The notes under the pieces were generated by a model. The model was not told the origin of the DNA and did not search any database. It saw only the letters and a list, made by a program, of their open reading frames with translations. From Pseudohoeflea suaedae (GTDB lineage: Bacteria > Pseudomonadota > Alphaproteobacteria > Rhizobiales > Rhizobiaceae), in NCBI RefSeq assembly GCF_004354915.1, contig NZ_SMSI01000001.1, positions 620,001 through 684,000 of the forward strand: 64,000 nt of DNA. The letters run 5' to 3'. The position numbers were made by a program, and so were the translations under genes. This document shows, one piece after another, positions 4,328 through 18,810 of the stretch (position 1 is its first letter; the number at the start of each line of letters is the position of its first letter).

Positions 4328-5887
4328 ATGATGCGGAGCAGTCAGTCGGATGAACCTGCTGATGACGGCCGGACCGGCGGCGAGCCCGTGGGCGGAGCGC
4401 CGGGAGGCGATGCGGGCGAACCCCACCGTCTGGCAGGCCTTTCGGCCAGTGTCCGCGCCGCCCCCATCCGCGGCCTTTCCACCCGGCTTCTCGGGCTGAC
4501 GATCCTCTTCGTGATGATCGCCGAAGTGCTGCTGTTTTTCCCCTCTGTCGCCAATACCCGCATGCGCTGGCTGCAGGACCGGCTCAACACCGCCGCCGCC
4601 GCGAGCGTGGTCATAGACGGTTTGCAGGACATGCGCCTGCCGCAGCCGATCCGCGAGGACACGCTGATGGCGACGGGAACCAAGGCGATCGCGTTGCGGA
4701 AGGACGGCATGTCGCGCATGCTCGTCTCCTCCGACATGCCGCCCGAGGTGACCCATCAGTACGATCTTTCCGACGTCGGCCCGGTCGAGGCCGTCATCGA
4801 CGCCTTCGACGAGCTGATTTTCGGCGGGGACCGGATCATCCGCGTCTACGGCCCGGTCGGCGGCAATCCCGACATGGTGATCGACGTCGTTCTCGAGGAC
4901 GCGCCCTTGCGTCAGGCGATGCTCACCTATGCGCGCAACATATTCCTCCTGTCGCTTTTCATCTCGGTCATCACCGCGGCCCTGGTCTTCTTCGCCATCA
5001 ACCGGATCATGATCCGGCCGATCCGGCGGATGACGGAAAACATGCAGGCCTTCTCCGGTGACCCGGAAAACCCGGCCCGCATCATCGCGCCGCGCCCGGT
5101 GCGCGACGAACTCGGCGTCGCCGAGCAGCATCTGGCCGGCATGCAGACGCAATTGCAGTCGACCCTGCGCCAGCAGCGCCATCTGGCCGATCTCGGCCTC
5201 GCCGTTTCCAAGATCAACCACGACATGCGCAACATCCTGGCTTCCGCCCAGCTCGTCTCGGACAGGCTGGCGTCGCTCGCCGATCCGATGGTCAAGATGC
5301 TGGCGCCGAAACTGCTGCGTTCGATCGATCGGGCGGTCGCCTATTCGGGCGAGGTGCTCGCCTATGGTCATGCGCGCGAAGCTCAGCCGAAGCGGCGCTT
5401 CATCAATCTGCATGCTCTGTCCAGCGAGGTCCGCGAGATCCTTTCGGAGGAAGCCGGCAGCGCCATCGATTTCCGGATCGAGATGGAGAAGACGCTCGAG
5501 GTCGAGGCCGATTCCGAGCAGCTGTTCCGGGTGCTCTACAATCTGTGCCGCAACGCGGTGGAAGCCCTGCGCGCCGATCTCCAAGCCGAGGCGAGCCTCG
5601 TCCGCCGCATCACCATCTTCGCTGCAAGACAGGGCAGCGTGGTCGAGATCCATGTCGCCGATACCGGCCCCGGCATGCCGGCAAAGGCGCGCGAAAACCT
5701 CTTCCAGCCGTTCCGCGGCTCTGTCCGGTCGGGCGGCACCGGTCTCGGCCTCGCCATCGCCCGCGAGCTGGTGATCGCCCATGGCGGCACCATCGCGCTC
5801 GCCGAATCGGCCAGCCATGGCACGACATTCCGTATCGAGCTCGCCGACCAGCCGCTGCCGATCACCAATTACCGCACGCTCGCCTAG
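4328..5887 (+). CDS. Sensor histidine kinase with HAMP domain
   Basis: About 519 aa. A disordered charged N-terminus (1-45) precedes transmembrane helix 1 (LTILFVMIAEVLLFFPSV), a periplasmic sensor region, helix 2 (LLSLFISVITAALVFFAINR) and HAMP (IRRMTENMQAF). The phosphoacceptor is in SKINHDMRNILASAQ, a divergent HDMRN H-box. The ATP-binding boxes are NLCRNAVEAL (N), VADTGPGMP (G1) and GGTGLGLAIARELV (G2). No cognate response regulator is adjacent. ATGs at 4328 and 4331 follow GGGGAG; upstream extension into the oxidoreductase gene is unlikely. Confidence 0.9.
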   Translation: MMRSSQSDEPADDGRTGGEPVGGAPGGDAGEPHRLAGLSASVRAAPIRGLSTRLLGLTILFVMIAEVLLFFPSVANTRMRWLQDRLNTAAAASVVIDGLQDMRLPQPIREDTLMATGTKAIALRKDGMSRMLVSSDMPPEVTHQYDLSDVGPVEAVIDAFDELIFGGDRIIRVYGPVGGNPDMVIDVVLEDAPLRQAMLTYARNIFLLSLFISVITAALVFFAINRIMIRPIRRMTENMQAFSGDPENPARIIAPRPVRDELGVAEQHLAGMQTQLQSTLRQQRHLADLGLAVSKINHDMRNILASAQLVSDRLASLADPMVKMLAPKLLRSIDRAVAYSGEVLAYGHAREAQPKRRFINLHALSSEVREILSEEAGSAIDFRIEMEKTLEVEADSEQLFRVLYNLCRNAVEALRADLQAEASLVRRITIFAARQGSVVEIHVADTGPGMPAKARENLFQPFRGSVRSGGTGLGLAIARELVIAHGGTIALAESASHGTTFRIELADQPLPITNYRTLA

Positions 5888-6206: not shown

Positions 6207-6283
6207 GCACCCGTAGCTCAGCTGGATAGAGCACCAGACTACGAATCTGGGGGTCAGGAGTTCGAATCTCTTCGGGTGCGCCA
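6207..6283 (+). tRNA. tRNA-Arg (anticodon ACG)
   Basis: 77-nt cloverleaf. The acceptor stem GCACCCG pairs with CGGGTGC, the discriminator is G, and CCA is encoded. The D-arm contains AGCTCAGCTGGATAGAGC. The anticodon arm is CCAGA-CTACGAA-TCTGG with anticodon ACG. The T-loop is TTCGAAT. The gene is complete; its 3' half doubles as the left attachment site of the island. Confidence 0.98.
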
Positions 6284-6287
6284 TTTC
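6234..6287 (+). repeat. Left attachment site (attL), 54 bp
   Basis: Starts at the anticodon stem of the tRNA (CCAGACTACG...) and runs through the 3' CCA and four further bases (TTTC). It is identical to 18427-18480. Divergence begins immediately outside: CACC before and TTTTC after, here, versus CCTC before and ACGTA after, at the right copy. Confidence 0.95.
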
Positions 6288-6311
6288 TTTTCAAAGGGTT
6301 GGCTGCTGATC

Positions 6312-6965
6312 ATGAGCAACCCAGAAACTCCAGAAAATTCCGGGGGCAAATCGGGGGCAACTCGCCGTCCCGAAACTCTGTCCGAACTTCGCGCTTCGCT
6401 TGCTCCGGATCACCCATTGAGCATGTTGATGGCGGCCGATCTTTCCGAGGATCAGTACGGAGAACTTGAGGCAATAGTCTCGAGGCCGGATTGGTCGGAG
6501 GATCATCGGGAAGTATTCCGCGGACTGGTGAGGCTCGCGGTTCACAAGTATCTCGCTTTGAGTTCGATATCGGAGGGAGGCCTCGCAATCACGGAAGCTT
6601 CCGCCGGCTTGGACGAGGATCTGTCGGCGCTTGAAAAGGCTGTTGCGGTGAAGGGGAAGCACGGTTTCCCTGAGAGCTCTGATGATCAGAAAGCGCTTTC
6701 GACCCTTCGAGCCTTGCGTGAACTCATTCCGCAAACAGTTTCCAAAAAGGCTGTAGATCCGCACCGCCGGGCAGTGCGGATGTTCTGTGACGCTTTCGGT
6801 TTTGGTGCAGGGAAGCTGGTCTCAGAGTTGAAGGCGGGTTCAAAGGAACATCCCAATCCGCTTTGCAAGTTCGTTCAGAGGTCATTGGCGTTCTCCGGCA
6901 AGAACCTCGGTCATGACCAGGTCCGCGAATATGTCGCGGAGGCACTGAGAGGACCGCGCCGCTAG
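6312..6965 (+). CDS. Hypothetical island protein
   Basis: 217 aa, not recognised. A polar start (MSNPETPENSGGKSGATRRP) is followed by a mostly alpha-helical, acidic and soluble sequence with no signal peptide or membrane segment; the end is basic (LRGPRR). It is the first gene inside the island, 25 bp after attL. The putative arm sites fall in codons 10-17, so the true start could lie further in. It is separated from the alpA-like gene by about 95 bp with its own ribosome site. Confidence 0.6.
   Translation: MSNPETPENSGGKSGATRRPETLSELRASLAPDHPLSMLMAADLSEDQYGELEAIVSRPDWSEDHREVFRGLVRLAVHKYLALSSISEGGLAITEASAGLDEDLSALEKAVAVKGKHGFPESSDDQKALSTLRALRELIPQTVSKKAVDPHRRAVRMFCDAFGFGAGKLVSELKAGSKEHPNPLCKFVQRSLAFSGKNLGHDQVREYVAEALRGPRR
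6341..6360 (+). promoter_or_regulatory. Putative integrase arm-type sites, left end
   Basis: Two copies of CGGGGGCAA begin at 6341 and 6352, 11 bp apart. The right end carries CTGGGGCAA twice at the same 11-bp spacing (18280, 18291). Paired short repeats on both sides of a tRNA-type core are what tyrosine integrases use as arm sites. The pair lies inside the first codons of the adjacent reading frame. Confidence 0.5.
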
Positions 6966-7060
6966 GGGGCAGCTTCTAGTAGCTTCGGAATTTTCTCCCC
7001 CTATTTCCAACCGCTTCCTCACATCAAGCTGCACCCCATCGCAAACCGATGGAGGCAGAC

Positions 7061-7252
7061 ATGACCAACCGCATGCTACCGATCTCAGCCGTAGTAGAGG
7101 CCACGGGTCTTTCGAAGCGGACAATCTACGAAGAAATTTCCCACAATCGATTTCCTCGCCCCGTCCAGCTCACCGCGCGCCGAGTTGGCTGGCCGGAAGA
7201 ACGCATCAATGCATGGCTCGCTCAGCGCGTCAGCGAAAGCGATGCGGCATGA
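7061..7252 (+). CDS. AlpA-family DNA-binding protein (excisionase-like)
   Basis: 63 aa with the MerR-like winged helix of AlpA proteins: LPISAVVEATGLSKRTIYEE, then the wing residues FPRPVQLTARRVGWPEE and INAWLAQR. Proteins of this type act as excisionases or activators in tRNA islands. The ATG at 7061 has GGAGG five bases upstream, so the upstream in-frame ATG at 7049 is not used. It heads a run of genes overlapping by one or four bases (7061-10970), which points to one transcript. Confidence 0.85.
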   Translation: MTNRMLPISAVVEATGLSKRTIYEEISHNRFPRPVQLTARRVGWPEERINAWLAQRVSESDAA

Positions 7253-7431
7253 CCTATGAGCTTGCGCACTCGGAAGCGATCCGGAAGGCAGCGCGGTGGC
7301 TGGCGACAGCACCACGCCATGAAGTTCAGCCCGCGGCGGTGCCTGCGCTCAAGAGCCGGTTCGGCCTCACCGCGCGAGAAGCAGTGGCTGCGATACGCGA
7401 GGCGAACCTCATCAAGGCCCGTGCAGCATGA
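7249..7431 (+). CDS. Small hypothetical island protein
   Basis: 60 aa from the ATG at 7249, which overlaps the alpA-like stop by four bases (ATGA). The sequence is basic and helical, with the stretch LKSRFGLTAREAVAAIREAN that could be a short helix-turn-helix. Family not recognised. It is likely translated by coupling, and its stop overlaps the next start in the same way. Confidence 0.65.
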   Translation: MTYELAHSEAIRKAARWLATAPRHEVQPAAVPALKSRFGLTAREAVAAIREANLIKARAA

Positions 7432-7661
7432 CACTTGATCAGCATGCACCCGATCTTGAGACCACGGAAGACGATCTCTTTGAAGAGATATTCGACCAAC
7501 TGAACCGGTCCTTCGTTCGCCATGGCCTGGAGCGGATCAACGAAACAATCGCGATGACGGAAGCTCTCGCAGATGAAGACGAGCGCTTCATGCGCGCGCC
7601 GCTTCAAATGCTGAAAGCCGCCGCGCTGATGGCCCGTCTCGAGCTCGAAGGAGAGATCTGA
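7428..7661 (+). CDS. Small acidic hypothetical island protein
   Basis: 77 aa, strongly acidic at the start (ETTEDDLFEEIFDQLN) and helical throughout, ending MARLELEGEI. No family recognised. ATGA overlap with the preceding gene and a one-base overlap (TGATG) with the tape-measure-like gene place it in the same operon. By position it could be an accessory or chaperone of the next product, but nothing in the sequence shows this. Confidence 0.65.
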   Translation: MTLDQHAPDLETTEDDLFEEIFDQLNRSFVRHGLERINETIAMTEALADEDERFMRAPLQMLKAAALMARLELEGEI

Positions 7662-9799
7662 TGGCTCAAACACTGATCGGCCGGCTGCTTCTTCGCATCA
7701 AGGCGGAAGGCCTCGGCGAAGCGAACAAGGTCGCCAGCGCCATGGATCAGATCGAACGCAAGGCGCGTGCAATGGGGGCAGGGGGCATCCGTTCCTGGGG
7801 TGTCGGGTTTCAGCGACAGCTCGACAAGCTCAAGCTGACGGCCGACCAAATCGGAGAAGTTGAAAGGTCTTGGGCACGGCTCCATGAGTCGATGAAGACC
7901 AGGCGCATCGATCGCGCTCTCCGCTCCTCCGAAATCTCCCATTGGCGGACGTCAACGATCAGCCAGCTCGGAATGACCCGCGCTGCGGTTGAGGATCACT
8001 TTCGCAAGGTCGAGAAGGGAACTCGCGGCCATATCATGCGGATGAAGGACATGATGCGCGCCGGCATCATCATGGCGGGCGCCTATACCATGCCGTACCT
8101 CGCTGGCCAACTCGGATTGGAGGCGGTTGGCGCAAGTTCGGAGCGCCGCCGAGAGTTCTTCCGCCAGCGAATGGCGAACATCCCGGAAGGTGATCAGCAG
8201 AAGATTTTCGATCGCTCCCAGCAGCTCTCCGAAAAGTATCCGTCGGTGCCGATCACCGCCATCATGGAGATGGCCCGCAGCTCCTACACCACGATGGGCG
8301 GCACTGAGCGAGGGCTCGGCGTGCTCGACAAGATGGTGGAATCTTTCGTCTCTCTTCAGAGTGCTCGCGGCCTAGAGGTCGCCGGTAACATGCTGATCGG
8401 TCTCCTCCGCGGCCTCGACAATTTCGGTGTGAACAAAAGCGGCCAAGTCGGCATCGATCGCGTCAACGATCTGATTGAGGCGGCGACAAAAGGTGGGCAG
8501 ATCGATCCTGATTTTGATCCCGGCACCTATTTCACGCTTGCCCGGCGCGCGAAGGTAGCAGGTCCGGCGCTGTCGCCCGACTTCCTAGCGCGCGCGTCTG
8601 TGTACATGCAGGATATGGGGCCAGATGCCGCCGGCACTTCGCTTGCCATGGCCTTCAAGTCCTTCGTTCTCGAGGCGGTGGGATCGGCCGGCGGCAAGAA
8701 GTATCTCGCTGAGCGCAATCGCCTTGGCATTAGGGGGGAGAGCGGGCTCAACGACGCCGAACTGTTCGGCTCGGATCCCGATAAGTGGGTGGTCAAGCAC
8801 CTGATCCCGGCGCTGATCAAAGACGGTGTTGATATGAACAACGACACCGCCATCGCTACCGCAGTCGGCAAGCTTTCGGGAGCTTCAAACGCCACGGCTC
8901 TGCTCACGCGTATGGTCACCCAGCGCGAGCAAATAGAGAAGTGGCTTGAGCTTCTGGATGACGCTATGGGTACGCGGGCAGCAGGCGAAGCGCGCGGCAA
9001 CGATCCCTTCGTCGCCTGGAAAGGCTTCCTCGGGTCGATGCAAAACCTGTCCGCCGCGTTGGTCCCGATCGATTCAATCTCCGCGGGGCTGAACAATCTC
9101 GCAGATGGTATTAACGCGCTCGCACGTGCTGGCGAGGATAATCCGTTCTTGGCTGCCCTCGGCATTGGCGCCGGCACCTATGGTGCTTACAAGGGCGTCC
9201 AATGGGGTGCAGGCAAGTTCGCCGACATGTTCGGACTGAAGGCATCGGCAGTTGCGCTCGACGGCTCCGCTGCGGCCTTGACCCGGGCAGCCGTAGCGCT
9301 CGGCGGCAGCGCGGTCGCGGACGGCGTTCCGGGCGGAGGTGCGCGCAGGGCGACAAAATCACTGCTTTCAGGTCGCGGGGCGGTCGCTGCGATCCTCACC
9401 GGTGTCGTGGCCGATGGCACGCGACGGATCGTCGAGGAACTCAGCACCGACAACGCCAAAGAGGCCCGTCGTCTCGCCACGCCTCGGCAGGCTGAAGTCG
9501 AGAGCATGAAACAGCTCGAGCAAGACTATCGTGATGAGCTCATCGAGCGTCCAGTGCCGTATAAACCGAAGATCGACGATACCGAGCTCCAGTCACAGGC
9601 GACGAGTGCCGCCACAGCACTACAGGCAGCCCTCTCCGTCGTCGCAACGCCCAAGGTAAACGCGGCCTCTATTCAATCCGCCGTCGCCTTGGCGCGAGAG
9701 CTTGTGAACCTGCTCAATCAGGCCGGCACCGCTGCTGAAGCGGCGCGGTCTCGGGTCGGTGCCGAGATGCGCCGCAACTTCGCCGATGGGGGCGAATGA
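7661..9799 (+). CDS. Phage tape-measure-like protein (orphan)
   Basis: 712 aa. The start (MAQTLIGRLLLRIKAEGLGE, then MDQIERKARAMG) resembles phage tail tape-measure proteins. A hydrophobic GIIMAGAYTMPYLAGQLG segment (about 125-145) and a region recalling the TP901 core follow (TYFTLARRAKVAGPAL, SVYMQDMGPDAAGTSLAMAF). A second Ala/Gly-rich hydrophobic stretch lies around residues 490-570 and a helical tail ends it. No other tail, baseplate or capsid gene is in the island, so it is not a prophage remnant in the usual sense. It could be a modified toxin, a tail-interference protein or a satellite component. Start set by the one-base overlap with the previous stop. Confidence 0.7.
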   Translation: MAQTLIGRLLLRIKAEGLGEANKVASAMDQIERKARAMGAGGIRSWGVGFQRQLDKLKLTADQIGEVERSWARLHESMKTRRIDRALRSSEISHWRTSTISQLGMTRAAVEDHFRKVEKGTRGHIMRMKDMMRAGIIMAGAYTMPYLAGQLGLEAVGASSERRREFFRQRMANIPEGDQQKIFDRSQQLSEKYPSVPITAIMEMARSSYTTMGGTERGLGVLDKMVESFVSLQSARGLEVAGNMLIGLLRGLDNFGVNKSGQVGIDRVNDLIEAATKGGQIDPDFDPGTYFTLARRAKVAGPALSPDFLARASVYMQDMGPDAAGTSLAMAFKSFVLEAVGSAGGKKYLAERNRLGIRGESGLNDAELFGSDPDKWVVKHLIPALIKDGVDMNNDTAIATAVGKLSGASNATALLTRMVTQREQIEKWLELLDDAMGTRAAGEARGNDPFVAWKGFLGSMQNLSAALVPIDSISAGLNNLADGINALARAGEDNPFLAALGIGAGTYGAYKGVQWGAGKFADMFGLKASAVALDGSAAALTRAAVALGGSAVADGVPGGGARRATKSLLSGRGAVAAILTGVVADGTRRIVEELSTDNAKEARRLATPRQAEVESMKQLEQDYRDELIERPVPYKPKIDDTELQSQATSAATALQAALSVVATPKVNAASIQSAVALARELVNLLNQAGTAAEAARSRVGAEMRRNFADGGE

Positions 9800-10656
9800 G
9801 TGTGGCAAATTCAGTATTGAAGTCCCGGACGCGGCTAAACGAGGACGGCACCGAACACCTGCTTTTGGGACGTGCAATCCTAAAGGTGAAGCCGTCTCGG
9901 AAGCGTGCGAAACGTACCGACCACAAGTTCTCAAAAGAGATACTGCGGTTGCGTGAAATCGAGGCGGTGATCAAACATAGGCATGGGACCGACATTCCTG
10001 ATCCGGATGGAACAGATGATGCGAGCCTGTGCCTCTCCTATATCGAGGCGGCTGCGGGGGCGTGTACCGACCAGGATATGTTCCATTGGTGCCGTCGTTG
10101 GGCACCCTGGGCCTCGGCTTCAGATATTGAGCGTGTCGTCCTGCTGAGCGCAAAGCGAAGGCGGATGATACCTGCGGATAGCGTAGCCAAGATGCTCTGT
10201 CTCTCGATGAGCGAAAGGACACAACTCGGTATAAAGACGATCGGTGCTTGCGATCTCACGAAGGCAAAGCGCACCGCGCTCATGAAAGAGCGGAAACGCG
10301 AGCGTGATCGGCAGCGGCAAGAAAGGATTCGTCGTGCTGAAGGGCGTGTGGATCGCGAGTCCCACGCGGCGCAGACCTTAGCTGCAACCCAGCCTTGGAA
10401 AGCGCTCGGCATTAGTCGGAGGGCATGGTTCTATCGGCAAAAGGCAAATTGCACCGAAGTGTCGCGAATAGTATCTACTAAGGAAAGCGACACTTCAGTG
10501 CAAACCGAGCAATTTCCTCCAGTTCCCCCTTCATCGCTCTTGCCTTCCGCCGCGCGTGTAACGCCGGCCGGGGGTCTGGGGCATCAGGCCCCAGCGGGGC
10601 TCCAAGGGGCGGTGCCCCATGGGAGCCACTACATCCGATCGGAGAGCAGGTCATGA
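9796..10656 (+). CDS. Hypothetical island protein with a basic helix
   Basis: 286 aa, family not identified. Residues about 150-195 are very basic and helical (TKAKRTALMKERKRERDRQR). Next comes QPWKALGISRRAWFYRQKAN, a short helix-turn-helix-like motif that I associate with accessory proteins of alphaproteobacterial mobile elements. The Pro-rich C-terminus looks disordered. The stretch AAGACTDQDMFHWCRRWAPW has two Cys and several Trp. ATGA overlaps at both ends. A DNA-binding role in element replication or transfer is possible. Confidence 0.6.
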   Translation: MSVANSVLKSRTRLNEDGTEHLLLGRAILKVKPSRKRAKRTDHKFSKEILRLREIEAVIKHRHGTDIPDPDGTDDASLCLSYIEAAAGACTDQDMFHWCRRWAPWASASDIERVVLLSAKRRRMIPADSVAKMLCLSMSERTQLGIKTIGACDLTKAKRTALMKERKRERDRQRQERIRRAEGRVDRESHAAQTLAATQPWKALGISRRAWFYRQKANCTEVSRIVSTKESDTSVQTEQFPPVPPSSLLPSAARVTPAGGLGHQAPAGLQGAVPHGSHYIRSESRS

Positions 10657-10970
10657 ATGAGGAGCAGATGGATCTCTTCACCTACGAAAGGCGCGCCTTG
10701 CGAAGCGCCGAGGTCATCGCCTTTCCTATCGACCAGAGGCTAGTTCATATCAGGATGACAGCTCGGCAACTTGAGGTGAAAAAGGGAGAGGCGGCGGACA
10801 GGTTTTGGCGAACGGAATGCCGCCGTCTTTGGGGACGTCTTCAGGCTGAAGGCTTCTCGGAAATTGAGGTGCGAGACCAAATTGCCGAATTCGCCGAAGC
10901 GGTACATTCAGAGATGAAGCGAGCCGCTTGGGCGACGTGGAAAGCTGGAAGCCCTTCGGGGGCAGCGTAG
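10653..10970 (+). CDS. DUF6074-like small protein
   Basis: 105 aa. The opening QMDLFTYERRALRSAEVIAF matches the pattern of DUF6074 proteins in rhizobial mobile elements. It continues PIDQRLVHIRMTARQLEVKK and a helical end rich in Arg, Glu and Ala. Function unknown. It overlaps the previous gene by ATGA and is the last of the overlapping chain; the next gene is convergent. Confidence 0.65.
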   Translation: MNEEQMDLFTYERRALRSAEVIAFPIDQRLVHIRMTARQLEVKKGEAADRFWRTECRRLWGRLQAEGFSEIEVRDQIAEFAEAVHSEMKRAAWATWKAGSPSGAA

Positions 10971-11002
10971 TTCCGGCTTGGTAGCGGCCATTTGATAGCC
11001 CA

Positions 11003-11233
11003 CTACGAACGACGTAACCTGACGCCCGCGCCTTCCCCGTCATCGGCCAGAAACGTCACGCCACGGGCTTCGAGCGCAGCCTGAAGCTTGTCCCGCGTCT
11101 CCGCCTGGAGGCCGCCTTTCTCGGTCTCGTATCGGTTCACCGTTCCCGCATTTACGCCAGCGATATCGGCCAGCTCGCGGACGCCGATTTTCAAGGCCGC
11201 ACGCGCCATCCGGATTTGACTTGGAGATACCAA
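11003..11233 (-). CDS. XRE-family helix-turn-helix regulator
   Basis: About 76 aa, a Cro/CI-type DNA-binding domain: SPSQIRMARAALKIGVRELA, then DIAGVNAGTVNRYETEKGGL, then a short end LEARGVTFLADDGEG typical of single-domain element regulators. The TTG at 11231-11233 lies 8 bases after GAGG and is preferred to the GTG at 11240-11242, which abuts it. It is divergent from the gene at 11339, with palindromes between them, so it probably represses its own and the rightward promoter. Confidence 0.8.
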   Translation of the reverse strand: MVSPSQIRMARAALKIGVRELADIAGVNAGTVNRYETEKGGLQAETRDKLQAALEARGVTFLADDGEGAGVRLRRS

Positions 11234-11247
11234 AATAAACACCTCGT

Positions 11248-11311
11248 TTGAATTAATTCATACACTGTATTTACTATGAGCGAACTGTGTTCTAAATTCT
11301 TAGCACAGTGT
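11248..11311 (+). promoter_or_regulatory. Divergent control region of the XRE regulator
   Basis: A candidate rightward promoter has TTGAAT at 11248-11253 and TACTAT at 11272-11277, spacing 18. A 10-bp palindrome GAATTAATTC (11250-11259) overlaps the -35. An inverted repeat ACACTGT (11262-11268) / ACAGTGT (11305-11311) brackets the start region. AT-rich compared with the surroundings. The layout suggests XRE binding; which repeat is the operator is not known. Confidence 0.45.
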
Positions 11312-11338
11312 TTGAATAACGCCAAACGGAGATTGATC

Positions 11339-11677
11339 ATGTCCAGCCTAGCCGAGATGTTTCGCGAAGCTCACCGTGACACGCGGGTATCCCTGCGGCG
11401 GGAGTCGGCTTCCCCGATGACATATCGTGAGTGCTTCGCATGGTTTCTCAAGCTTGCATGGGCAAAGGCGAAGAAGGCGATGTTCGAAGTGAGAGCCAAG
11501 GCTGTGGCGCCGAAGCTGTTCGCTGAACTCACCGATTTGCAGCGCGGGTTTCGCTTCACGGAAATGTCCGACAACCGCTTTTACTCTTCCGGCCGCGAGA
11601 GTGCGATGCGTTCGCGTATCGCGGCGCTGGAGGCGGCTTTGGCCGTCGCCGTCTCTCAACCTCAACCCCACGCCTAA
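11339..11677 (+). CDS. Hypothetical island protein
   Basis: 112 aa from the ATG at 11339, with a CGGAGAT ribosome site. Helical and basic in the middle (KLAWAKAKKAMFEVRAKAVA), aromatic at the start (YRECFAWFLKLAW). No signal peptide. Not recognised. The small gene at 11692 has the same CGGAGAT site and probably belongs to the same transcript. Confidence 0.6.
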   Translation: MSSLAEMFREAHRDTRVSLRRESASPMTYRECFAWFLKLAWAKAKKAMFEVRAKAVAPKLFAELTDLQRGFRFTEMSDNRFYSSGRESAMRSRIAALEAALAVAVSQPQPHA

Positions 11678-11691
11678 ACGGAGATACCTTC

Positions 11692-11931
11692 ATGGCACCG
11701 CGATCGAAAATCGAAACCCATAGCGAAATCAGTTTGGCGCTCGCCGGGCTCGTCACTGTCTTGTGGGAACGGCTTGCCGATTCCGATGCGGACGAACCCA
11801 CGATGGCCTTGATTTCCGAAATTCAGCGCAAGGCTCGCGTAGCGCTCGATCAGGCGGTCGAGCTTGAAGAGCTCCAGTACTGCGATCTCAACGCGTCCAT
11901 GACGCCTGCGCGTCCCGTCGCGATCCAGTAG
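11692..11931 (+). CDS. Hypothetical small acidic protein
   Basis: 79 aa, helical and acidic, with an amphipathic stretch LALAGLVTVLWERLADSDAD. Start ATG 11692 after CGGAGATACCTTC. No family recognised. It lies 14 bp after the previous gene and is the last gene before a 370-bp gap. Confidence 0.55.
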   Translation: MAPRSKIETHSEISLALAGLVTVLWERLADSDADEPTMALISEIQRKARVALDQAVELEELQYCDLNASMTPARPVAIQ

Positions 11932-12302
11932 CAGCATGCCGGCGCGTTAGCGCCACCTACCCTGCCTCGTGGGCCGTACAGGCCGCACGCCGCGTCCACC
12001 ATGCTCGCCACCCTTCAAGACAGCTAAGTCGCTAATCGCTCTCCTACGAGGGCGGCACAGCACGTTTAGGGACCGTATCCCGCTTGTGCCGCTCGCGGGG
12101 CGCAGCCTCGCGGCATATCGTCCGGATTCTCTTTGCCCTAGGGGGAACCGCCGCCGACAATCATTAATGGGTCGCCATCCTGCAGAGCGGATCGCTTGAA
12201 ATTATGAGCTGCCAATACCTTGGCAACACATCGTATACGGGGTTAAATCTAAAAGTATGTAAAATTACGATTGCAAGAAATTTGCCCATGATTGGGGAGT
12301 AG
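11932..12302. other. Intergenic region upstream of the GHKL/methyltransferase cargo
   Basis: 371 bp with no gene. The left part is GC-rich, while the last 120 bp (from about 12180) are AT-rich, as expected for the promoter of the cargo genes. GGGGAG directly precedes the GHKL start. The change in composition may mark a cargo junction. I see no clear palindrome. Confidence 0.5.
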
Positions 12303-14210
12303 ATGTCAGCTGTTCCAGTTGAAAGCGAAAAGATCCACAGGGCCCAGATATTAGGCGAGCGCATACGGCAATCTGTGGAAGGTGAGGCGCTAGAACTCCC
12401 TCTCAACACCAGCCAACGCATAATCGCGCGGGTCACTGATGGTATTTATCGCGAACCGTGGGCAGCCTTCAGAGAGCTGTGTGCGAACGCGTATGATGCC
12501 GACGCAACGCGAGTGGTAATCGAAACCGGCGCGCCAGAATTTGATCAAATTACAATTCGCGATGATGGCGCGGGCATGTCTCCCGAGACGCTAGCCTTCG
12601 TTGTTGAAAATATAGGTGGCAGTAGTAAGCGCACAACCGAAGGGCCAATGCTACATACCGCGAGTGAGGGCGATCCGGACTTCAGTCCTGGCGGTCGACC
12701 TCTAATCGGCAAAATCGGTATTGGCTTATTCGCCGTCGCTCAGCTTACACAGCATTTTCAAATTATTACCAAAGCTCGCGGCGAGAATGTCCGATCGTGG
12801 GCCACTGTAATTTTGAAAACGCATAATGAGTCCAGGCTGAAGGACAAACCTCCTGGCTCCGAGTTTGAAGCTGGCCGAGTCAAAATTCGGTCGGAGGAGG
12901 TCCCGGATGCAGAAGTGGATGCGCATGGAACAACCATCATTCTACATGAGCTTCGACCGGAGATTCGCAGATTGCTGCAAAGCACGAATATGTGGCAGGC
13001 TCAGGCTGAGCGCGGGCCTAACGACGAACCGATTTTACCGCCCCCGACCTATCACATTGGACGACGTCAGGATGAAAAGCGCGGGCTCACCCATCTCGAC
13101 GCTAATCTTCCTTGGAAGGATGGCTTAGAACCGCTGGATCAATTTCGAGAACTCGTGCGTGCAGCCTCGGAAACTGACGCGAGCTCTAAGAAGGGAGCTT
13201 CGCTCGAGCAGCTCGACGAATATCTCCGGTCTATATGGAAATTAAGCCTTTCACTGCCGCTGCAATATATCGATCAGCACCCATTCGAGACTACCGGCGA
13301 CTCAGGAATTATCTTTCTAGAGGTGCCGCGCACGAACAAACGGGCCGAAATCACAAAGCTTGCGATTGATGAGACTGTAAGGGAGCATTTCGGGCTCGTT
13401 TCAGGGAAGACCGACAGTGTTGATAGGTTCGATGTGGAGTTCGATGGAATTCTCCTGCGTAGACCTATCAAGTTGCCAGCAGAGTTGGCCGTTCCGTCAC
13501 GCCTCCCGGCGCCTGTTATGATGGTGGGTAGCGAAATCGCACCTTTCCCGGAAACTTCGTTGGACCGTGCTGGCGGTGTTCTAAGGTTCGAGGCTTATCT
13601 CTATTGGAATAGTAGGATTACGCCAAAAGACATCCAAGGATCGATAATCCGCGTCCGCGAAGCAAGCGGGACATTATTTGACGCCCGTTTCGCAGATTAT
13701 CAAGTCTCAGAGCAGAGCCGTCTCCGGCAGATTACTGCTGAGATATTCGTACTTGAGGGCTTGGATGGTGCGATAAACATCGACAGAGAATCGTTCAACT
13801 ACAGTCACCCGCATTACATCTACATTCAAAAATGGCTGCACCGAGCGCTCAGGCTACTCGCCAACCGCCTTAAACATATCGCTGGCGAAGATCTTGAGAG
13901 AGAACGCCGCGAGCAAAAGACACAGACGGCCGAAGCTACACTTCAATCGGCGTATGACATCTGGACTTCCCGGCGCGGCGCCGAGGCAGATCCTCCTTTT
14001 CGTAAGACCGAAATTCCTCAGTTGCCAGCAGCCGTGGCGGAAGCTTCGATGGTGTGGAAGCAAGAGCCCGCCGCCGACCACGTGACGCTGGCCACCTCCA
14101 TATCGGTCGTTCTCGAGGCTTACGGAGTGTTGTCTGATCTCAGGCAGGAGGAGCGAGCAGAACTAGTTAACGATCTTATAAAGGTGATGCAAACTCATGG
14201 CATCAAGTGA
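12303..14210 (+). CDS. GHKL-fold (Hsp90/MutL/MORC-type) ATPase
   Basis: 635 aa. The N-terminal 250 residues carry the Bergerat ATP site. The N-box is FRELCANAYDADATRV (catalytic Glu and Mg-binding Asn), the G1 box is IRDDGAGMSPETLAFV, and the G2 box is PLIGKIGIGLFAVAQL after a SSKRT turn. The remainder is a MutL/MORC-like transducer and helical tail with basic-acidic repeats near residues 525-550. No nuclease, histidine-kinase or HNH motif is visible. GHKL ATPases of this class are known beside DNA methyltransferases in restriction-like systems (prokaryotic MORC/MutL relatives). ATG at 12303 after GGGGAG. The 3' end overlaps the next gene by 14 bp, so the two products are probably partners. 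Lower GC than the flanks indicates transfer. Confidence 0.85.
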   Translation: MSAVPVESEKIHRAQILGERIRQSVEGEALELPLNTSQRIIARVTDGIYREPWAAFRELCANAYDADATRVVIETGAPEFDQITIRDDGAGMSPETLAFVVENIGGSSKRTTEGPMLHTASEGDPDFSPGGRPLIGKIGIGLFAVAQLTQHFQIITKARGENVRSWATVILKTHNESRLKDKPPGSEFEAGRVKIRSEEVPDAEVDAHGTTIILHELRPEIRRLLQSTNMWQAQAERGPNDEPILPPPTYHIGRRQDEKRGLTHLDANLPWKDGLEPLDQFRELVRAASETDASSKKGASLEQLDEYLRSIWKLSLSLPLQYIDQHPFETTGDSGIIFLEVPRTNKRAEITKLAIDETVREHFGLVSGKTDSVDRFDVEFDGILLRRPIKLPAELAVPSRLPAPVMMVGSEIAPFPETSLDRAGGVLRFEAYLYWNSRITPKDIQGSIIRVREASGTLFDARFADYQVSEQSRLRQITAEIFVLEGLDGAINIDRESFNYSHPHYIYIQKWLHRALRLLANRLKHIAGEDLERERREQKTQTAEATLQSAYDIWTSRRGAEADPPFRKTEIPQLPAAVAEASMVWKQEPAADHVTLATSISVVLEAYGVLSDLRQEERAELVNDLIKVMQTHGIK

Positions 14211-15492
14211 GGGGCCGGAAGATTTTGGCGTCGAGTTGGCGGAAGATTCCCTGCCTGCGACAGTAAGCACCGACGCGGTGCCAATCCGCCTAAACCACCT
14301 CTTTCCATGGCACCGTCCGAGGAAGCAGAAGGTCCGCCGAGACCAATGGGTCGGTTTGGCAAACACGCTTGTTCGGAAGCTGAAGCAGCAAAATGTCTTG
14401 GCGCCGAAACAGATGACGTTGCCCGACGGTAGTTCTTTCCAGCAAGCGCCAGAGATACGCTATCTAACCCTTCCAGGGCTCGACTATCTCGACGTTCGGC
14501 TCATCGGGGAAATGTGTGGCGATAATGATTGCAAGCTGGAAAGCGTGGGCTTTCTCAGCGACGCCGAAGACTCAGCCATGATGGCGCGCGCGCGGGTTAG
14601 GGAGACATCCCTGATACAGGCTGGGTATATCATGGATACCTCGTTGACGCTTCCTCGCAGCATTGAATCTATCTGCAATACTACAAGCGGAACACTAAAC
14701 GAGTTAAAGCGGCGTGCACCTTTTCACATCATTAACATTGACGCTTGTGGCTCCATCGCGCCCACGAGAGCGACCCATTCACGGCGCCTGATAGACGCAA
14801 TTTTCCGTTTGGTCGAGCTTCAGCTCGGCAAGGCTAATCATCGCTGGCTATTGTTCGTCACTGTTGATGCTCGCGACGACAATCTTGACGCCGATACGTT
14901 CGAGGCACTTTGCAACGCGGTTAGAGAGAATGCGAAGGCGAACGCAGATTTTGAGCTAGGCGCCATTGCATTTTTGAACGGCGAGGCGACTGAGCTTGAA
15001 GGCGCCATTGAGTCGTCAAAAACTGACGGACGCCCGTTTCTAAATATGTTCTCGCTTGGGTTTGCGAAATGGCTCTTACATTTGGCCGAAGTGAAACAAT
15101 GGTCGATCAAGCTCAAACGATCTCATTGCTATTCGACAAGGCCGACCGAAGATGCTTCACCTTCCATGGTCTCGCTTGCATTCGAGTTTCTTCCGCCGCC
15201 CGTGGGGCTTGTGGACCCACACAGTGTATCGAGGCAAAAACCGTCGCCGGGTGGCTCCACGAACAACCCGTCAATGCAGATTTTGGAAGGGGCAAGTCAG
15301 ATCGACGATTTGGATGCACTTCTCGAGGCGGATGCAGAACTCAGCGTTGAATTGAACGCTGCTACGCATTCGCTACTGATAGAGGCTGGCTATGAAATCG
15401 ACACACTATCGCCTCTAGTTGCAGAAGCAGTCGCGGGGCAGGCTACGCCGCCTCATCGTTTTCCAGACCTTCTTCAGGCGAAAGGTGCTTGA
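14197..15492 (+). CDS. Uncharacterised partner of the GHKL ATPase
   Basis: 431 aa, no domain I can name with confidence. After a polar start comes NHLFPWHRPRKQKVRRDQWV, then EIRYLTLPGLDYLDVRLIGE and later APFHIINIDACGSIAP. The alternating beta/helix pattern and the IINIDACGS strand-end recall motif IV (DPPxG-like) of Rossmann methyltransferases such as Trm1-like or three-Cys-motif partner proteins. No clear SAM-binding glycine loop is seen, so it may be an inactive or different Rossmann protein. The C-terminus is acidic. It starts 14 bp inside the GHKL gene and its last 50 bp overlap the convergent methyltransferase gene. I suspect homologues exist beside similar ATPase/methyltransferase pairs in Pseudomonas islands but cannot check. 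Confidence 0.75.
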   Translation: MASSEGPEDFGVELAEDSLPATVSTDAVPIRLNHLFPWHRPRKQKVRRDQWVGLANTLVRKLKQQNVLAPKQMTLPDGSSFQQAPEIRYLTLPGLDYLDVRLIGEMCGDNDCKLESVGFLSDAEDSAMMARARVRETSLIQAGYIMDTSLTLPRSIESICNTTSGTLNELKRRAPFHIINIDACGSIAPTRATHSRRLIDAIFRLVELQLGKANHRWLLFVTVDARDDNLDADTFEALCNAVRENAKANADFELGAIAFLNGEATELEGAIESSKTDGRPFLNMFSLGFAKWLLHLAEVKQWSIKLKRSHCYSTRPTEDASPSMVSLAFEFLPPPVGLVDPHSVSRQKPSPGGSTNNPSMQILEGASQIDDLDALLEADAELSVELNAATHSLLIEAGYEIDTLSPLVAEAVAGQATPPHRFPDLLQAKGA

Positions 15493-16462
15493 GTAGGCTT
15501 CTTGCAACGGCCTCAGCCATTGACGGCGGGACGGCCTCGCTCACTTGGTCGATTTGCGACGATAGCGACCCGAGAAGCTCGTATGAGTGCGGAAATCCCT
15601 GCAGTAGCATCGCTTCATACACGCTTAGTCGGCGGTGGCAGTCTGGATGAACATGGACTTCGCGATGGCCATAGGCGACGGTAATGCTCGGCTTTTCCCA
15701 TGCCAGTGTCTTAAAACTGCGGTTGCTGCTGTCTCCCGAGCGCAAACTACCATTCTTGAACCGAGCTGACCGAGGAGCCATGCACCAATGATTACGGTGG
15801 TAAGGAAAAGCTGACGGATTAGCGTTCTTTGAGTAATAGAACGGCTCTGGAAGCCCCCTAAGAACCGTAGAAATTGCGGGTCCCCTCTCCACTTCAGGTG
15901 ATTTTTCTGGTCCCGGCCACACCGTCTCGCCGAGCAGAGACTTATTTAAACCGACGATGAACAGACGCTCGCGCTTCTGAGGGGTGCCGTAGTCTGCCGC
16001 GTTTAAGAGCTGTTCGGAAACAAAAAAGCCCGCATCAGCTAGCGCATCCTTGAAGATGATCAGTCTGTGAGCATGCAGTTCACTGCGGAGACCTTTAACA
16101 TTCTCCATAACGAAGAAACTGACAGGGTTGCGCGCGTTGAGCTTTTTTAGAAGCTTCGCATAAACGAGTGGTAGCTGATGTCGTGGGTCGGTTTCCGTAA
16201 TGGCGCGATTGGCTTGGCTGAAGCTCTGACAGGGTGGTCCGCCAATAACGCCTTCTGGCGCAAATTCGGAGCCCCATAAGTCATCGAGCTTTTCGAGTGT
16301 GAGATCGTTCACGTCGAAACAATGACCGTGCTTGTCAGTTCGATTATGGTTGTAGGTGCGAACGCTATCTGCCTTCTTGTCGAAGGCTAAGCCGATCTCG
16401 AAATTGGCGTTCTCAAACCCCAGATCCATACCGCCGGCGCCGCAAAAAAGGCTCAGTAGCAA
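15443..16462 (-). CDS. DNA (cytosine-5)-methyltransferase
   Basis: 339 aa, full length for a small C5 methylase. Motif I SLFCGAGGMDLGFENA lies at the very N-terminus. Motif IV GGPPCQSFSQANR holds the catalytic Cys. Motif VI is VMENVKGL, motif VIII DYGTPQKRERLFIVG, and motif X lies near VPPSMAEAVARSLL. The region about 200-260 (PFYYSKNANPSAFPYHRNHW) would be the target-recognition domain; the target sequence is unknown. The start is a TTG at 16460-16462 with AGAGGAG seven bases upstream. No Vsr or classical restriction endonuclease is adjacent. It converges on, and overlaps by 50 bp, the 431-aa partner gene. Confidence 0.94.
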   Translation of the reverse strand: MLLSLFCGAGGMDLGFENANFEIGLAFDKKADSVRTYNHNRTDKHGHCFDVNDLTLEKLDDLWGSEFAPEGVIGGPPCQSFSQANRAITETDPRHQLPLVYAKLLKKLNARNPVSFFVMENVKGLRSELHAHRLIIFKDALADAGFFVSEQLLNAADYGTPQKRERLFIVGLNKSLLGETVWPGPEKSPEVERGPAISTVLRGLPEPFYYSKNANPSAFPYHRNHWCMAPRSARFKNGSLRSGDSSNRSFKTLAWEKPSITVAYGHREVHVHPDCHRRLSVYEAMLLQGFPHSYELLGSLSSQIDQVSEAVPPSMAEAVARSLLKHLSPEEGLENDEAA

Positions 16463-16627
16463 ATGTTCACTCCTCTGCGCCTGCGGCGGTGCTTCTCGCG
16501 AGTTCGAAGGTTAGCCCGGTTTTGACTTGGAATCCAGAACATTGGGGGGCACTACGCCGCCGTCCAGCGGAGATCTTGCATATCGCATTTCCCTGCATGA
16601 GTGGCGCATGGTGTACCGCTTAAAGTA

Positions 16628-16966
16628 TCAGTTCTCAGTGGTAAATGACTGAAGCGTCCACAGGCATCGCATTTCGCTGGCAGGTCGAAGGCATTGCAGT
16701 CCGAGGACTTCCAGATCCTCTCGATATACAATCTGTCCTGCTTTGAACTCACGGCAAAGATCGAAAATCACCGCATTAGTGATCGCCTTCGTCAATGCTT
16801 CCCGGTCCCCCTCGATAGAGTAGGTAAACAGCTTCTCCGCATAGTGTTTGTCAAAGCACCCTAGGCCGCTCTTGGTTATTTTAATGGGGTCGGAATGCGC
16901 TGTCGATGTAGTCATCCCTATCGCCATTATGGAGAAAGCTACAGCCGGGATGAAATTGCATCTCAT
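16628..16966 (-). CDS. Small secreted hypothetical protein
   Basis: 112 aa with a plausible signal peptide: MRC start, hydrophobic FIPAVAFSIMAIGM, likely cut near STAHS-DP. The mature part has four Cys and the motif GDREALTKAITNAVIFDLCR followed by FKAGQIVYRED. This resembles small periplasmic hypothetical proteins common in rhizobia. Its start overlaps the integrase stop by four bases, so it is probably translated from the integrase transcript. Function unknown. Confidence 0.55.
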   Translation of the reverse strand: MRCNFIPAVAFSIMAIGMTTSTAHSDPIKITKSGLGCFDKHYAEKLFTYSIEGDREALTKAITNAVIFDLCREFKAGQIVYREDLEVLGLQCLRPASEMRCLWTLQSFTTEN

Positions 16967-18270
16967 GAAGATCGCTCTACTGACGTTAGCGGGATCACAT
17001 TTTCAGACCGGCTTTCACCGCTGACGATCTCGGTCAAAAGCGCGCCCCATGCGTCTAGGGCGCGGCGTTTCTCGGCGAGGTAATCGTAAAGGTCATAGTG
17101 GCGGCCGGTGACGACGGCGGAGCCGCCCGTGTCGCCGCTGTGAGCCAGAACCTGGGAAACGACAAACCGCGGGATCCCGATCCGTTCGCTGGTCAGGTTC
17201 GTTGCCCCGGTGCGCCGAAAATCGTGAGGTGTCGCGCGAGGGATCTTCAGAGCGCTGGTCAGTCGGCTCATGGCGCGCGTGAACGCGTGCCGGTCGAAGT
17301 GTCCCCTTTCCTCGGCGCTGGATTTGAAGACATGCCCTTCTGCGCCCATCGCTTCCTTTGCTTTGAACAGCAAACCGGTCGCGATATCGCTCAGGGGGAC
17401 AACGTGCGGACGCTTTCCTTTCATGCGGGTGGCTGGCACGGTCCAAAGCCGTCTGTCCAGATCGATTTCGTCCCAATGCGCACCAATCACCTCGCCGCCG
17501 CGCTGTAGGGTTGCGAGAGCGAAGCGGAGAGCAATTCCCATTTCGATGGACAGTGCAAGCTTCTCCACCGCGCCCGGCTGTGCGCAGGCGCGCCAGATCG
17601 CGCGGATTTCGTCATCGTCCAGCACCCTCTCTCGAGGCGTCGGGGTGATCACGGCGATATCGTGGGCTGGGTTGGCGGGGATCAGGTCTTTGGAGAGAGC
17701 GTAGCTCATGAGCTGCCGAATGACGTTCCGAGCGTGCCGGCCGTTCGACGGGGCCTTCTTTGAGAGCCGCGAAACCAGCGCCTGGATGTCCGCCCGTTTG
17801 ATGTCGGCAAGGGGTAGGGCGCCCATGTCCTTCTTGATCAGCTTGTCGAAAACCCGGCGTTCCTCGCGGAGCGTCGAGTCCCGCTTGGCTCCGCGGGCGT
17901 TGGGGCGGTGAAGTCCTAGTGTGGCATCTGCGAAGTAGGATTCGGCGAGCCCCTCCAGCGTTCTCAGGCGCTTCGTCATTGCCTCAGCGCGCGCCAGTCG
18001 GGTATCTTGAACGAGATCCGCGCCTCCGGCGACCGCGCCTTTGATCTTACGAGCCTCTTCGCGCGCTCTGGAAAGCGAGATCGACGGAAAGGGGCCTATC
18101 GACTTGCGCCGGTGTTCGCCGGATGCGTTCACGTAGCGAACGGACCAAGAGCGTTTGCCCTTTTCCGTCACCCGAAAGATCAGGCCGGATTCCTCATCAT
18201 CACGCAACTCGAGCCTTTTGCCTTTCTCAGGCATCGATCGCTTGAGGAGGTCAGTCGTCAACTTGGCCAC
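16963..18270 (-). CDS. int: Tyrosine site-specific recombinase (integrase, P4-type)
   Basis: 435 aa. The N-terminal DUF4102-type arm-binding domain (LELRDDEESGLIFRVTEKGK, RRKSIGPFPSISLSRAREEA) is followed by a SAM-like core-binding domain and the catalytic domain. Visible catalytic residues: Arg in ATLQRGGEVIGAHW, Lys in RMKGKRPHVVPLS, His-x-x-Arg in TPHDFRRTGATNL, His in VSQVLAHSGDTGG, and Tyr in GRHYDLYDYLAEKRRAL. It reads inward from the right border; its 5' end is 157 bp from attR. It should integrate the island at the tRNA-Arg 3' end. Full length and intact, so the island may still be mobile. Confidence 0.95.
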   Translation of the reverse strand: MAKLTTDLLKRSMPEKGKRLELRDDEESGLIFRVTEKGKRSWSVRYVNASGEHRRKSIGPFPSISLSRAREEARKIKGAVAGGADLVQDTRLARAEAMTKRLRTLEGLAESYFADATLGLHRPNARGAKRDSTLREERRVFDKLIKKDMGALPLADIKRADIQALVSRLSKKAPSNGRHARNVIRQLMSYALSKDLIPANPAHDIAVITPTPRERVLDDDEIRAIWRACAQPGAVEKLALSIEMGIALRFALATLQRGGEVIGAHWDEIDLDRRLWTVPATRMKGKRPHVVPLSDIATGLLFKAKEAMGAEGHVFKSSAEERGHFDRHAFTRAMSRLTSALKIPRATPHDFRRTGATNLTSERIGIPRFVVSQVLAHSGDTGGSAVVTGRHYDLYDYLAEKRRALDAWGALLTEIVSGESRSENVIPLTSVERSS

Positions 18271-18279
18271 TCAAAACTC

Positions 18280-18300
18280 CTGGGGCAATTCTGGGGCAAT
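18280..18300 (+). promoter_or_regulatory. Putative integrase arm-type sites, right end
   Basis: CTGGGGCAA at 18280 and again at 18291, 11 bp apart, same orientation and spacing as CGGGGGCAA at 6341 and 6352. They lie just upstream of the integrase start, so they could also serve in autoregulation of int. Confidence 0.5.
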
Positions 18301-18426
18301 AGATATCCGCTCTCTTTTGCATTAGTTTGCACTCTACTGCACCCTACGCGAGATCGCAATTGTCGAATAAACAAGGAGTTAGAAGTTGAACGCCATCTAC
18401 CAGCATTCGCCTGCACAGAATGACCT

Positions 18427-18480
18427 CCAGACTACGAATCTGGGGGTCAGGAGTTCGAATCTCTTCGGGTGCGCCATTTC
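18427..18480 (+). repeat. Right attachment site (attR), 54 bp
   Basis: Perfect copy of 6234-6287: anticodon arm, variable arm, T-arm and 3' acceptor strand of tRNA-Arg. The 5' half of the tRNA is absent here, so this is not a second tRNA gene. Confidence 0.95.
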
Positions 18481-18810
18481 ACGTAAATTCGCGATGCGAA
18501 ATGTGGAAGGCGTCTTCCTCGGGGTTTCGGCGGCAATCGTTTGGAACAGGCGATGAGAGCCGTTCGAACGAATTTTGCCCGGGCGCCATTTTTTTCTCCA
18601 CCTTCTGTGCTCCTTGCGGTCTGCGACGTCGGGTGTTTGAATCGCTTCTCAGGCTCACAGGTCGCGTTACGAACCACACAAGGATGACATCTGCCCGACC
18701 CGCTCTATCTTGGAGGCTGATCTCCCGTCCGGTCTTCCGAGGCCATGGCTCCGAGGTCCGGTATTGCGGCAGCCGGCGCTGCGAAATTATGAGCGAAAGA
18801 CTGAAACTCA
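18481..18810. other. Intergenic region right of the island
   Basis: 330 bp of host sequence between attR and the response regulator. No convincing gene or RNA. Before insertion it would have followed tRNA-Arg directly; GCCATTTTTTTCTCC near 18590 could have served as a terminator element. The promoter of the polysaccharide locus must lie here, but I cannot place it. Confidence 0.4.

What the first reader, a model, noticed from the sequence alone, without database searches (positions are those of the whole stretch)
14197..15492. 431-aa protein of unknown family tied to the GHKL ATPase
Full-length soluble protein with alternating strand/helix text and an IINIDACGS segment resembling the DPPxG region of Rossmann methyltransferases but without a clear SAM glycine loop. 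It is translationally coupled to the ATPase, so it is the likely specificity or effector subunit of the system.
Basis: partly seen in the sequence, partly recalled or inferred. Interest (0 to 1): 0.75.

Follow-up and report, generated by a model that had tools for sequence, protein, structure and literature searches.

The report
GHKL ATPase partner with methyltransferase-like fold
This bacterial protein of unknown function always sits beside a MutL/Hsp90-like ATPase and a DNA methyltransferase, and it is predicted to have the shape of a methyltransferase without the usual cofactor-binding loop, so it is probably a subunit of an unstudied restriction-type defence against foreign DNA.

Summary
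The ORF is real. It overlaps the GHKL ATPase gene by 14 nt and converges on a C5-cytosine DNA methyltransferase. It is not family-less: it passes the curated cut-off of NCBIfam NF047698 (PP_RS20740 family, function unknown). I found six further loci, including one on a phage contig. All seven carry GHKL ATPase + this protein + C5 methyltransferase, usually with GHKL and the protein overlapping; three add a Vsr nuclease gene. Identities of GHKL and this protein co-vary (r=0.93, against 0.54 with the methyltransferase). AlphaFold2 models of the window protein and of a 24%-identical homologue both give a class I methyltransferase fold (VIA-align Z 13.6 and 13.8), but no member has a canonical SAM motif I; YLTLPGxDxLDV stands there instead. 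The cassette is cargo of a ~12.2-kb element integrated at tRNA-Arg. Neither GHKL nor this protein matches a known nuclease family, and the genome has no Vsr. Best reading: a restriction-modification-like module of the MORC/paraMORC kind, in which this protein is the obligate non-canonical methyltransferase-fold partner of the GHKL motor, most likely reading the DNA site or its methylation. Cassette and fold are well supported; the biochemical role is inferred. New variant of a known kind.

The parts
6232..6287 (+). left attachment repeat: 3' half of tRNA-Arg(ACG) gene (6207-6283) plus 4 nt
   Evidence: direct repeat 6229-6287 / 18422-18480, 59 nt, 97% identical
12303..14210 (+). GHKL ATPase, 635 aa, Hsp90/MutL-like, with all four ATPase motifs and an NIDRESFN..HPH segment, no recognised nuclease domain
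   Evidence: PF13589 E 4.9e-14; conserved in six loci; PDB profile hits MutL, Hsp90, MORC3 limited to the N-terminal ATPase region
14197..15492 (+). the finding: 431-aa PP_RS20740-family protein, predicted class I methyltransferase fold with non-canonical motif I
15443..16462 (-). C5-cytosine DNA methyltransferase, 339 aa, TTG start, intact GGPPCQ and ENV motifs, convergent with and overlapping the finding by 50 nt
   Evidence: PF00145 E 1.9e-54; alignment
16963..18270 (-). tyrosine integrase of the element
   Evidence: PF00589 E 8.3e-18; phrog_1 integrase E 1.4e-57
18425..18480 (+). right attachment repeat (copy of tRNA-Arg 3' end)

Best explanation
A mobile three-gene restriction-modification-like module. 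The C5 methyltransferase marks the host's own sites. The GHKL protein, a MutL/Hsp90/MORC-type ATP-driven clamp, and the 431-aa protein form one inseparable effector complex that acts on DNA lacking the mark. The 431-aa protein has a class I methyltransferase fold whose SAM motif I has been replaced by a different conserved motif (YLTLPGxDxLDV), with an invariant N-terminal WHxPRKxxxRxxQW helix and a conserved NxDxxxS segment at the end of strand 4. It most likely serves as the DNA/site-reading (or methylation-state-reading) subunit that licenses the GHKL clamp. Shown: gene order, gene overlap, family, predicted fold, lack of canonical motif I, co-variation with GHKL, mobile location. Inferred: complex formation, DNA reading, defence role. 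Unknown: what does the damage (Vsr-type nuclease in some loci, an unrecognised activity of the pair, or no cutting at all).
For: GHKL + this protein + C5 methyltransferase adjacent in 7 of 7 loci found, down to 22-24% identity and including a lambdoid-type phage contig. GHKL/protein genes overlap by 1-14 nt in six loci and lie 11 nt apart in the seventh. Identity across loci correlates 0.93 for protein-GHKL against 0.54 for protein-methyltransferase. Trees put the window with L012(/L013) for both GHKL and the protein; the alternative with L020/L021 is rejected (AU p 8e-6 and 7e-5). Fold: two AlphaFold2 models, pLDDT 71 and 79, pTM 0.76 and 0.82; nearly all top PDB matches are class I methyltransferases or methyltransferase-like folds, Z 13.6 and 13.8 to Trm1 3axs; Foldseek best E 4e-5 for the homologue. 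No hh[DE]hGxG or GxGxG in any of seven members. Island signs: 59-nt tRNA-Arg repeats, integrase, cassette G+C 53% against 63-65%. GHKL proteins with C5 methyltransferases and Vsr are linked by gene context to restriction-modification systems (PMC2292703, PMC8011034).
Against: No experiment shows restriction by any member. No PADLOC, Pfam, PHROG or PDB sequence match for the protein. The only published data, overexpression of P. putida PP_RS20740 improving furfural tolerance (PMC9630843), do not point to DNA. Invariant residues are not significantly concentrated at the canonical ligand edge of the sheet (Fisher p 0.57). Only seven loci. No own nuclease found, so the effector step has no identified agent in the window.
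Confidence: 0.5

Rival explanations
1. The 431-aa protein is an active SAM-dependent methyltransferase with an aberrant motif I; the cassette has two modification activities (C5 DNA methylation plus a second substrate).
For: Class I methyltransferase fold in both models; motif-IV-like [IL]D.C.S segment at the end of strand 4; strict conservation of PG....D and N.D over 22% identity.
Against: No canonical motif I in any of seven members; no sequence match to any methyltransferase profile; C of the motif IV-like segment is not invariant (L009 has T).
Confidence: 0.2
2. The 431-aa protein is itself the nuclease or other DNA-damaging effector, with an unrecognised active site built on the methyltransferase-like fold; GHKL only regulates it.
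For: In a two-gene relative (Pantoea prophage, L036) the GHKL protein matches the BbrUII/HgiDII restriction enzyme model over its full length and no partner gene follows, whereas here the GHKL protein shares only the ATPase domain and this protein is added. No Vsr in the genome.
Against: No nuclease motif or nuclease fold match; class I methyltransferase-fold nucleases are not known to me.
Confidence: 0.15
3. Not defence: the pair is a repair helper acting with Vsr/C5 methylation (very-short-patch-like) or a chaperone-like pair with a housekeeping or stress role.
For: Vsr gene adjacent in three of seven loci; GHKL resembles Hsp90 and MutL; furfural-tolerance report for the P. putida homologue (PMC9630843).
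Against: Sporadic distribution (about 1% of genomes of the order), integrated elements at tRNA genes and a phage contig; in the other four loci no Vsr is seen (one of them a short contig), and the window's genome has none.
Confidence: 0.1

Closest known systems
NCBIfam NF047698, PP_RS20740 family (Pseudomonas putida type member)
   Same: Full-length match over the curated cut-off in all seven members
   Different: Nothing: this is its family; but the family has no assigned function
MORC/paraMORC GHKL restriction-modification systems (Iyer 2008, PMC2292703)
   Same: GHKL + S5-type ATPase beside C5 methyltransferase, often Vsr; lateral mobility
   Different: No SFII helicase, no fused or adjacent restriction-fold nuclease recognised in the window; instead a non-canonical methyltransferase-fold partner
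BbrUII/HgiDII family GHKL restriction enzymes (NF050001)
   Same: GHKL ATPase encoded with a C5 methyltransferase
   Different: Window GHKL matches only the ATPase domain, 58 bits against a cut-off of 550; a two-gene relative lacks the 431-aa partner
HEF_HK / Response_reg_2 pairs (PMC8011034, PF19192)
   Same: Two coupled genes, GHKL plus partner, next to C5 methyltransferase and Vsr
   Different: Partner there is about 620-645 aa with a receiver-like domain; no PF19192 match here
paraMORC3 / Shedu GHKL nucleases such as VcSduA (PMC12137116)
   Same: GHKL ATPase of a phage defence protein
   Different: There a PD-(D/E)xK DUF4263 nuclease is fused to the ATPase; none recognised here

Membership tests
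NF047698 PP_RS20740 family | whole-protein score over curated cut-off of 200 bits | tested here: met
   273.9 bits, residues 29-403; six homologues 247-382 bits
class I SAM-dependent methyltransferases | seven-stranded Rossmann-like fold | tested here: met
   two predicted models, Z 13.6/13.8, nearly all top rows methyltransferases or methyltransferase-like (GRAS) folds; predicted, not solved
class I SAM-dependent methyltransferases | motif I hh[DE]hGxG(xG) SAM loop | tested here: not met
   absent in all seven members; YxxxPGxxxxD there instead
class I SAM-dependent methyltransferases | SAM binding and methyl transfer | not testable with these tools
   needs protein
Type II restriction-modification system | intact DNA methyltransferase | tested here: met
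   PF00145 E 1.9e-54, GGPPCQ and ENV intact
Type II restriction-modification system | identifiable restriction endonuclease | tested here: inconclusive
   no nuclease family matched in GHKL or the 431-aa protein apart from ATPase-region hits to GHKL restriction enzymes; Vsr only in three other loci, none in this genome
GHKL ATPases | Bergerat-fold motifs (ExxxNAxDA, DxGxGM, GKxGIG, HGT) | tested here: met
   PF13589 E 4.9e-14; motifs invariant or nearly invariant in six loci
BbrUII/HgiDII restriction enzymes (NF050001) | score over 550 bits along the whole protein | tested here: not met
   58.3 bits, residues 54-223 of 635 only
HEF_HK/Response_reg_2 system | partner carries PF19192 | tested here: not met
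   no PF19192 match at E<=1; none in this genome
Shedu / paraMORC3 | DUF4263 PD-(D/E)xK nuclease domain | tested here: not met
   Pfam scan of GHKL and the 431-aa protein shows none

The most novel reading that the evidence does not exclude
A non-cutting restriction system: a methyltransferase-fold protein that has lost its SAM loop has become the sensor that loads a MORC-like GHKL clamp onto unmethylated foreign DNA, which is then silenced or compacted rather than cleaved, a bacterial parallel of eukaryotic MORC silencing.
Probability: 0.12. Interest if true: 0.88.

Novelty: new variant of a known kind. Interest (0 to 1): 0.52.

Why it matters
GHKL (MORC/paraMORC) ATPases were linked to restriction-modification by context in 2008, but how they select and stop foreign DNA is poorly understood. 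Here is a compact mobile cassette in which the ATPase comes with one dedicated partner of predicted methyltransferase fold and no recognised nuclease. It is small enough to be tested as a whole, and would show whether such clamps cut, recruit a nuclease, or silence. It also gives a fold and a working context to a named but uncharacterised NCBI family.

Tried and rejected
Pfam, PADLOC, PHROGs and PDB sequence searches with the protein and its family gave nothing convincing (uS15m at E 0.009 taken as helix chance). Plasmid and phage collections hold no tblastn match to the window protein or to the L021 homologue. Profile comparison with the C5 methyltransferases of the cassette: no relation seen. 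Response_reg_2 as homologue: rejected. Concentration of invariant residues at the pocket edge: tested, not significant. Swap of the methyltransferase gene: the window's enzyme is nearest to L021 (66%) while GHKL and the protein are nearest to L012, but the AU test does not reject the congruent tree (p 0.15), so this is only suggestive. The G958 hit (E 7.6e-4) is an OmpA-like C-terminal region by reading, rejected. Full empty-site proof: a same-genus genome has the tRNA-Arg and left flank without the element, but its right flank differs, so only the left junction is shown. Papers on PP_3987-PP_3991: none relevant.

Full report
Observation. The ORF at 14197-15492 (+) is intact, 431 aa, with the quoted IINIDACGS segment. 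It starts 14 nt inside the end of the 635-aa GHKL ORF and ends by overlapping, tail to tail, a 339-aa C5-cytosine DNA methyltransferase by 50 nt.

Family. It matches NCBIfam NF047698, 'PP_RS20740 family protein', with 273.9 bits against a curated cut-off of 200. The family has no function. The only paper found that names the type member reports that overexpressing mutated PP_RS20740 helps P. putida against furfural and calls it a hypothetical protein (PMC9630843). Pfam, PADLOC, PHROGs and PDB sequence searches give nothing convincing.

Relatives and context. Relatives are rare: 3 of 201 relatives, 1 of 385 genomes of the class, 2 of 398 of the phylum, about 5 real ones of 397 of the order (the window's own genome counts in each). 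Six further loci were read: L012 (G160), L013/L008 (Hyphomicrobiales MAG), L009 (gut alphaproteobacterial MAG), L020 (G1056), L021 (G1115) and L027 (IMG/VR contig with NinB and NinG genes). All seven loci hold a GHKL gene directly followed by this family, with a C5 methyltransferase next to the pair; L013 is a short contig and shows only the end of its GHKL gene. GHKL and partner overlap by 1 to 14 nt in six loci and lie 11 nt apart in L009. The methyltransferase is convergent in five loci and upstream on the same strand in L021 and L027. A Vsr gene (Pfam PF03852, E 7e-31 to 8e-28) is nearby in L012, L020 and L021, not seen in L009 or L027, and absent from the whole window genome.

Co-variation. 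Pairwise identities over six complete loci correlate 0.93 between the partner and GHKL, and 0.54 between either and the methyltransferase. Trees without the long L009 branch put the window with L012 (and L013) for GHKL and partner, support 100/100; holding the window with L020 and L021 is rejected (AU p 7.7e-6 and 7.3e-5). The methyltransferase tree puts the window with L020 and L021 (100/99), but the congruent tree is not rejected (p 0.15). So GHKL and partner travel as one unit; an exchange of the methyltransferase is only suggested.

Fold. AlphaFold2 of the window protein with 4 sequences: pLDDT 71, pTM 0.76. AlphaFold2 of the L027 homologue, 24% identical, with 7 sequences: pLDDT 79, pTM 0.82. 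Both show the strand/helix order of class I methyltransferases. Foldseek: 6 and 52 PDB matches at E<=0.001, almost all class I methyltransferases or their relatives. VIA-align: best Z 13.6 (231 residues, rmsd 4.3) and 13.8 (237 residues, rmsd 4.0), both to Trm1 3axs; 830 and 817 of 1000 chains reach Z 8. The lists include the M.BseCI DNA methyltransferase and plant GRAS domains, which from general knowledge are methyltransferase-like folds without known methylation. TM-scores are low (about 0.3), so this is a shared fold, not close kinship.

Active-site reading. No member has a canonical motif I; the equivalent stretch reads Y[LF]xx PGx[DE]x[LF]D in most members. Invariant over seven members are W38 H39 P41 R42 K43 R47 Q50 W51, Y89, P93, G94, D99, G118, N180, D182, S186, W217, T222 among 31 positions. 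Conservation is not significantly concentrated at the canonical ligand edge (p 0.57), so I do not claim a conserved SAM pocket; the strongest block is the basic N-terminal WHxPRKxxxRxxQW helix, which may contact nucleic acid (inference).

The ATPase. The GHKL protein has the ATPase motifs and an Hsp90-like NIDRESFN segment; its well conserved part ends near residue 525, with a short conserved helical tail. Its profile matches MutL, Hsp90 and MORC3 in PDB in the ATPase region only. It shares only the ATPase domain with BbrUII/HgiDII enzymes (58 bits against 550), while the GHKL protein of a Pantoea prophage cassette lacking the partner gene matches that model from end to end. The partner thus stands where other GHKL systems have a fused C-terminal part.

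Mobile element. The tRNA-Arg(ACG) gene at 6207-6283 and a second copy of its 3' half at 18422-18480 (59 nt, 97%) bracket about 12.2 kb that ends with a tyrosine integrase. The three genes are 53% G+C, the flanks 63-65%. A same-genus genome has tRNA-Arg and left flank without the element. L012 and L020 also lie near tRNA genes.

Mechanism. Context from papers: MORC/paraMORC GHKL ATPases occur with C5 methyltransferases, Vsr and nucleases in restriction-modification operons and are proposed to loop DNA (PMC2292703); coupled GHKL-partner pairs next to C5 methyltransferase and Vsr are described with a different partner (PMC8011034); a GHKL-nuclease fusion stops phages (VcSduA, PMC12137116). The simplest reading is that the methyltransferase protects self, and the GHKL clamp with its obligate methyltransferase-fold partner acts on unmarked DNA, the partner reading the site. 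The damaging step is not identified in this window.

Judgement. The finding is a new variant of a known kind.

Noticed in passing
window 6232-18480: About 12.2-kb element integrated at tRNA-Arg(ACG) with 59-nt flanking repeats and integrase; its left part holds a 712-aa protein of unknown family (7661-9799; tape-measure-like only by reading) and a DUF6074 gene (10653-10970).
   Followed up: partly
L035 (own genome C1:1188000-1199000), 5307-5453: A second integrase-bearing locus in the same genome shares 148 nt at 85% with the sequence around and just right of attR (window 18445-18589), suggesting a related element or junction remnant.
   Followed up: partly
L009 2259-3299: A reverse transcriptase of retron type (by reading) and a type I restriction set (HsdR, HsdS, HsdM) flank the cassette in the gut alphaproteobacterial MAG: a likely defence island.
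   Followed up: no
L036 5959-8977: Pantoea prophage with a two-gene C5 methyltransferase + GHKL (BbrUII/HgiDII-like) cassette lacking the 431-aa partner.
   Followed up: partly
L027 3617-7765: The three-gene cassette lies between NinB/NinG and other genes of a lambdoid-type phage contig, as phage-borne cargo.
   Followed up: partly
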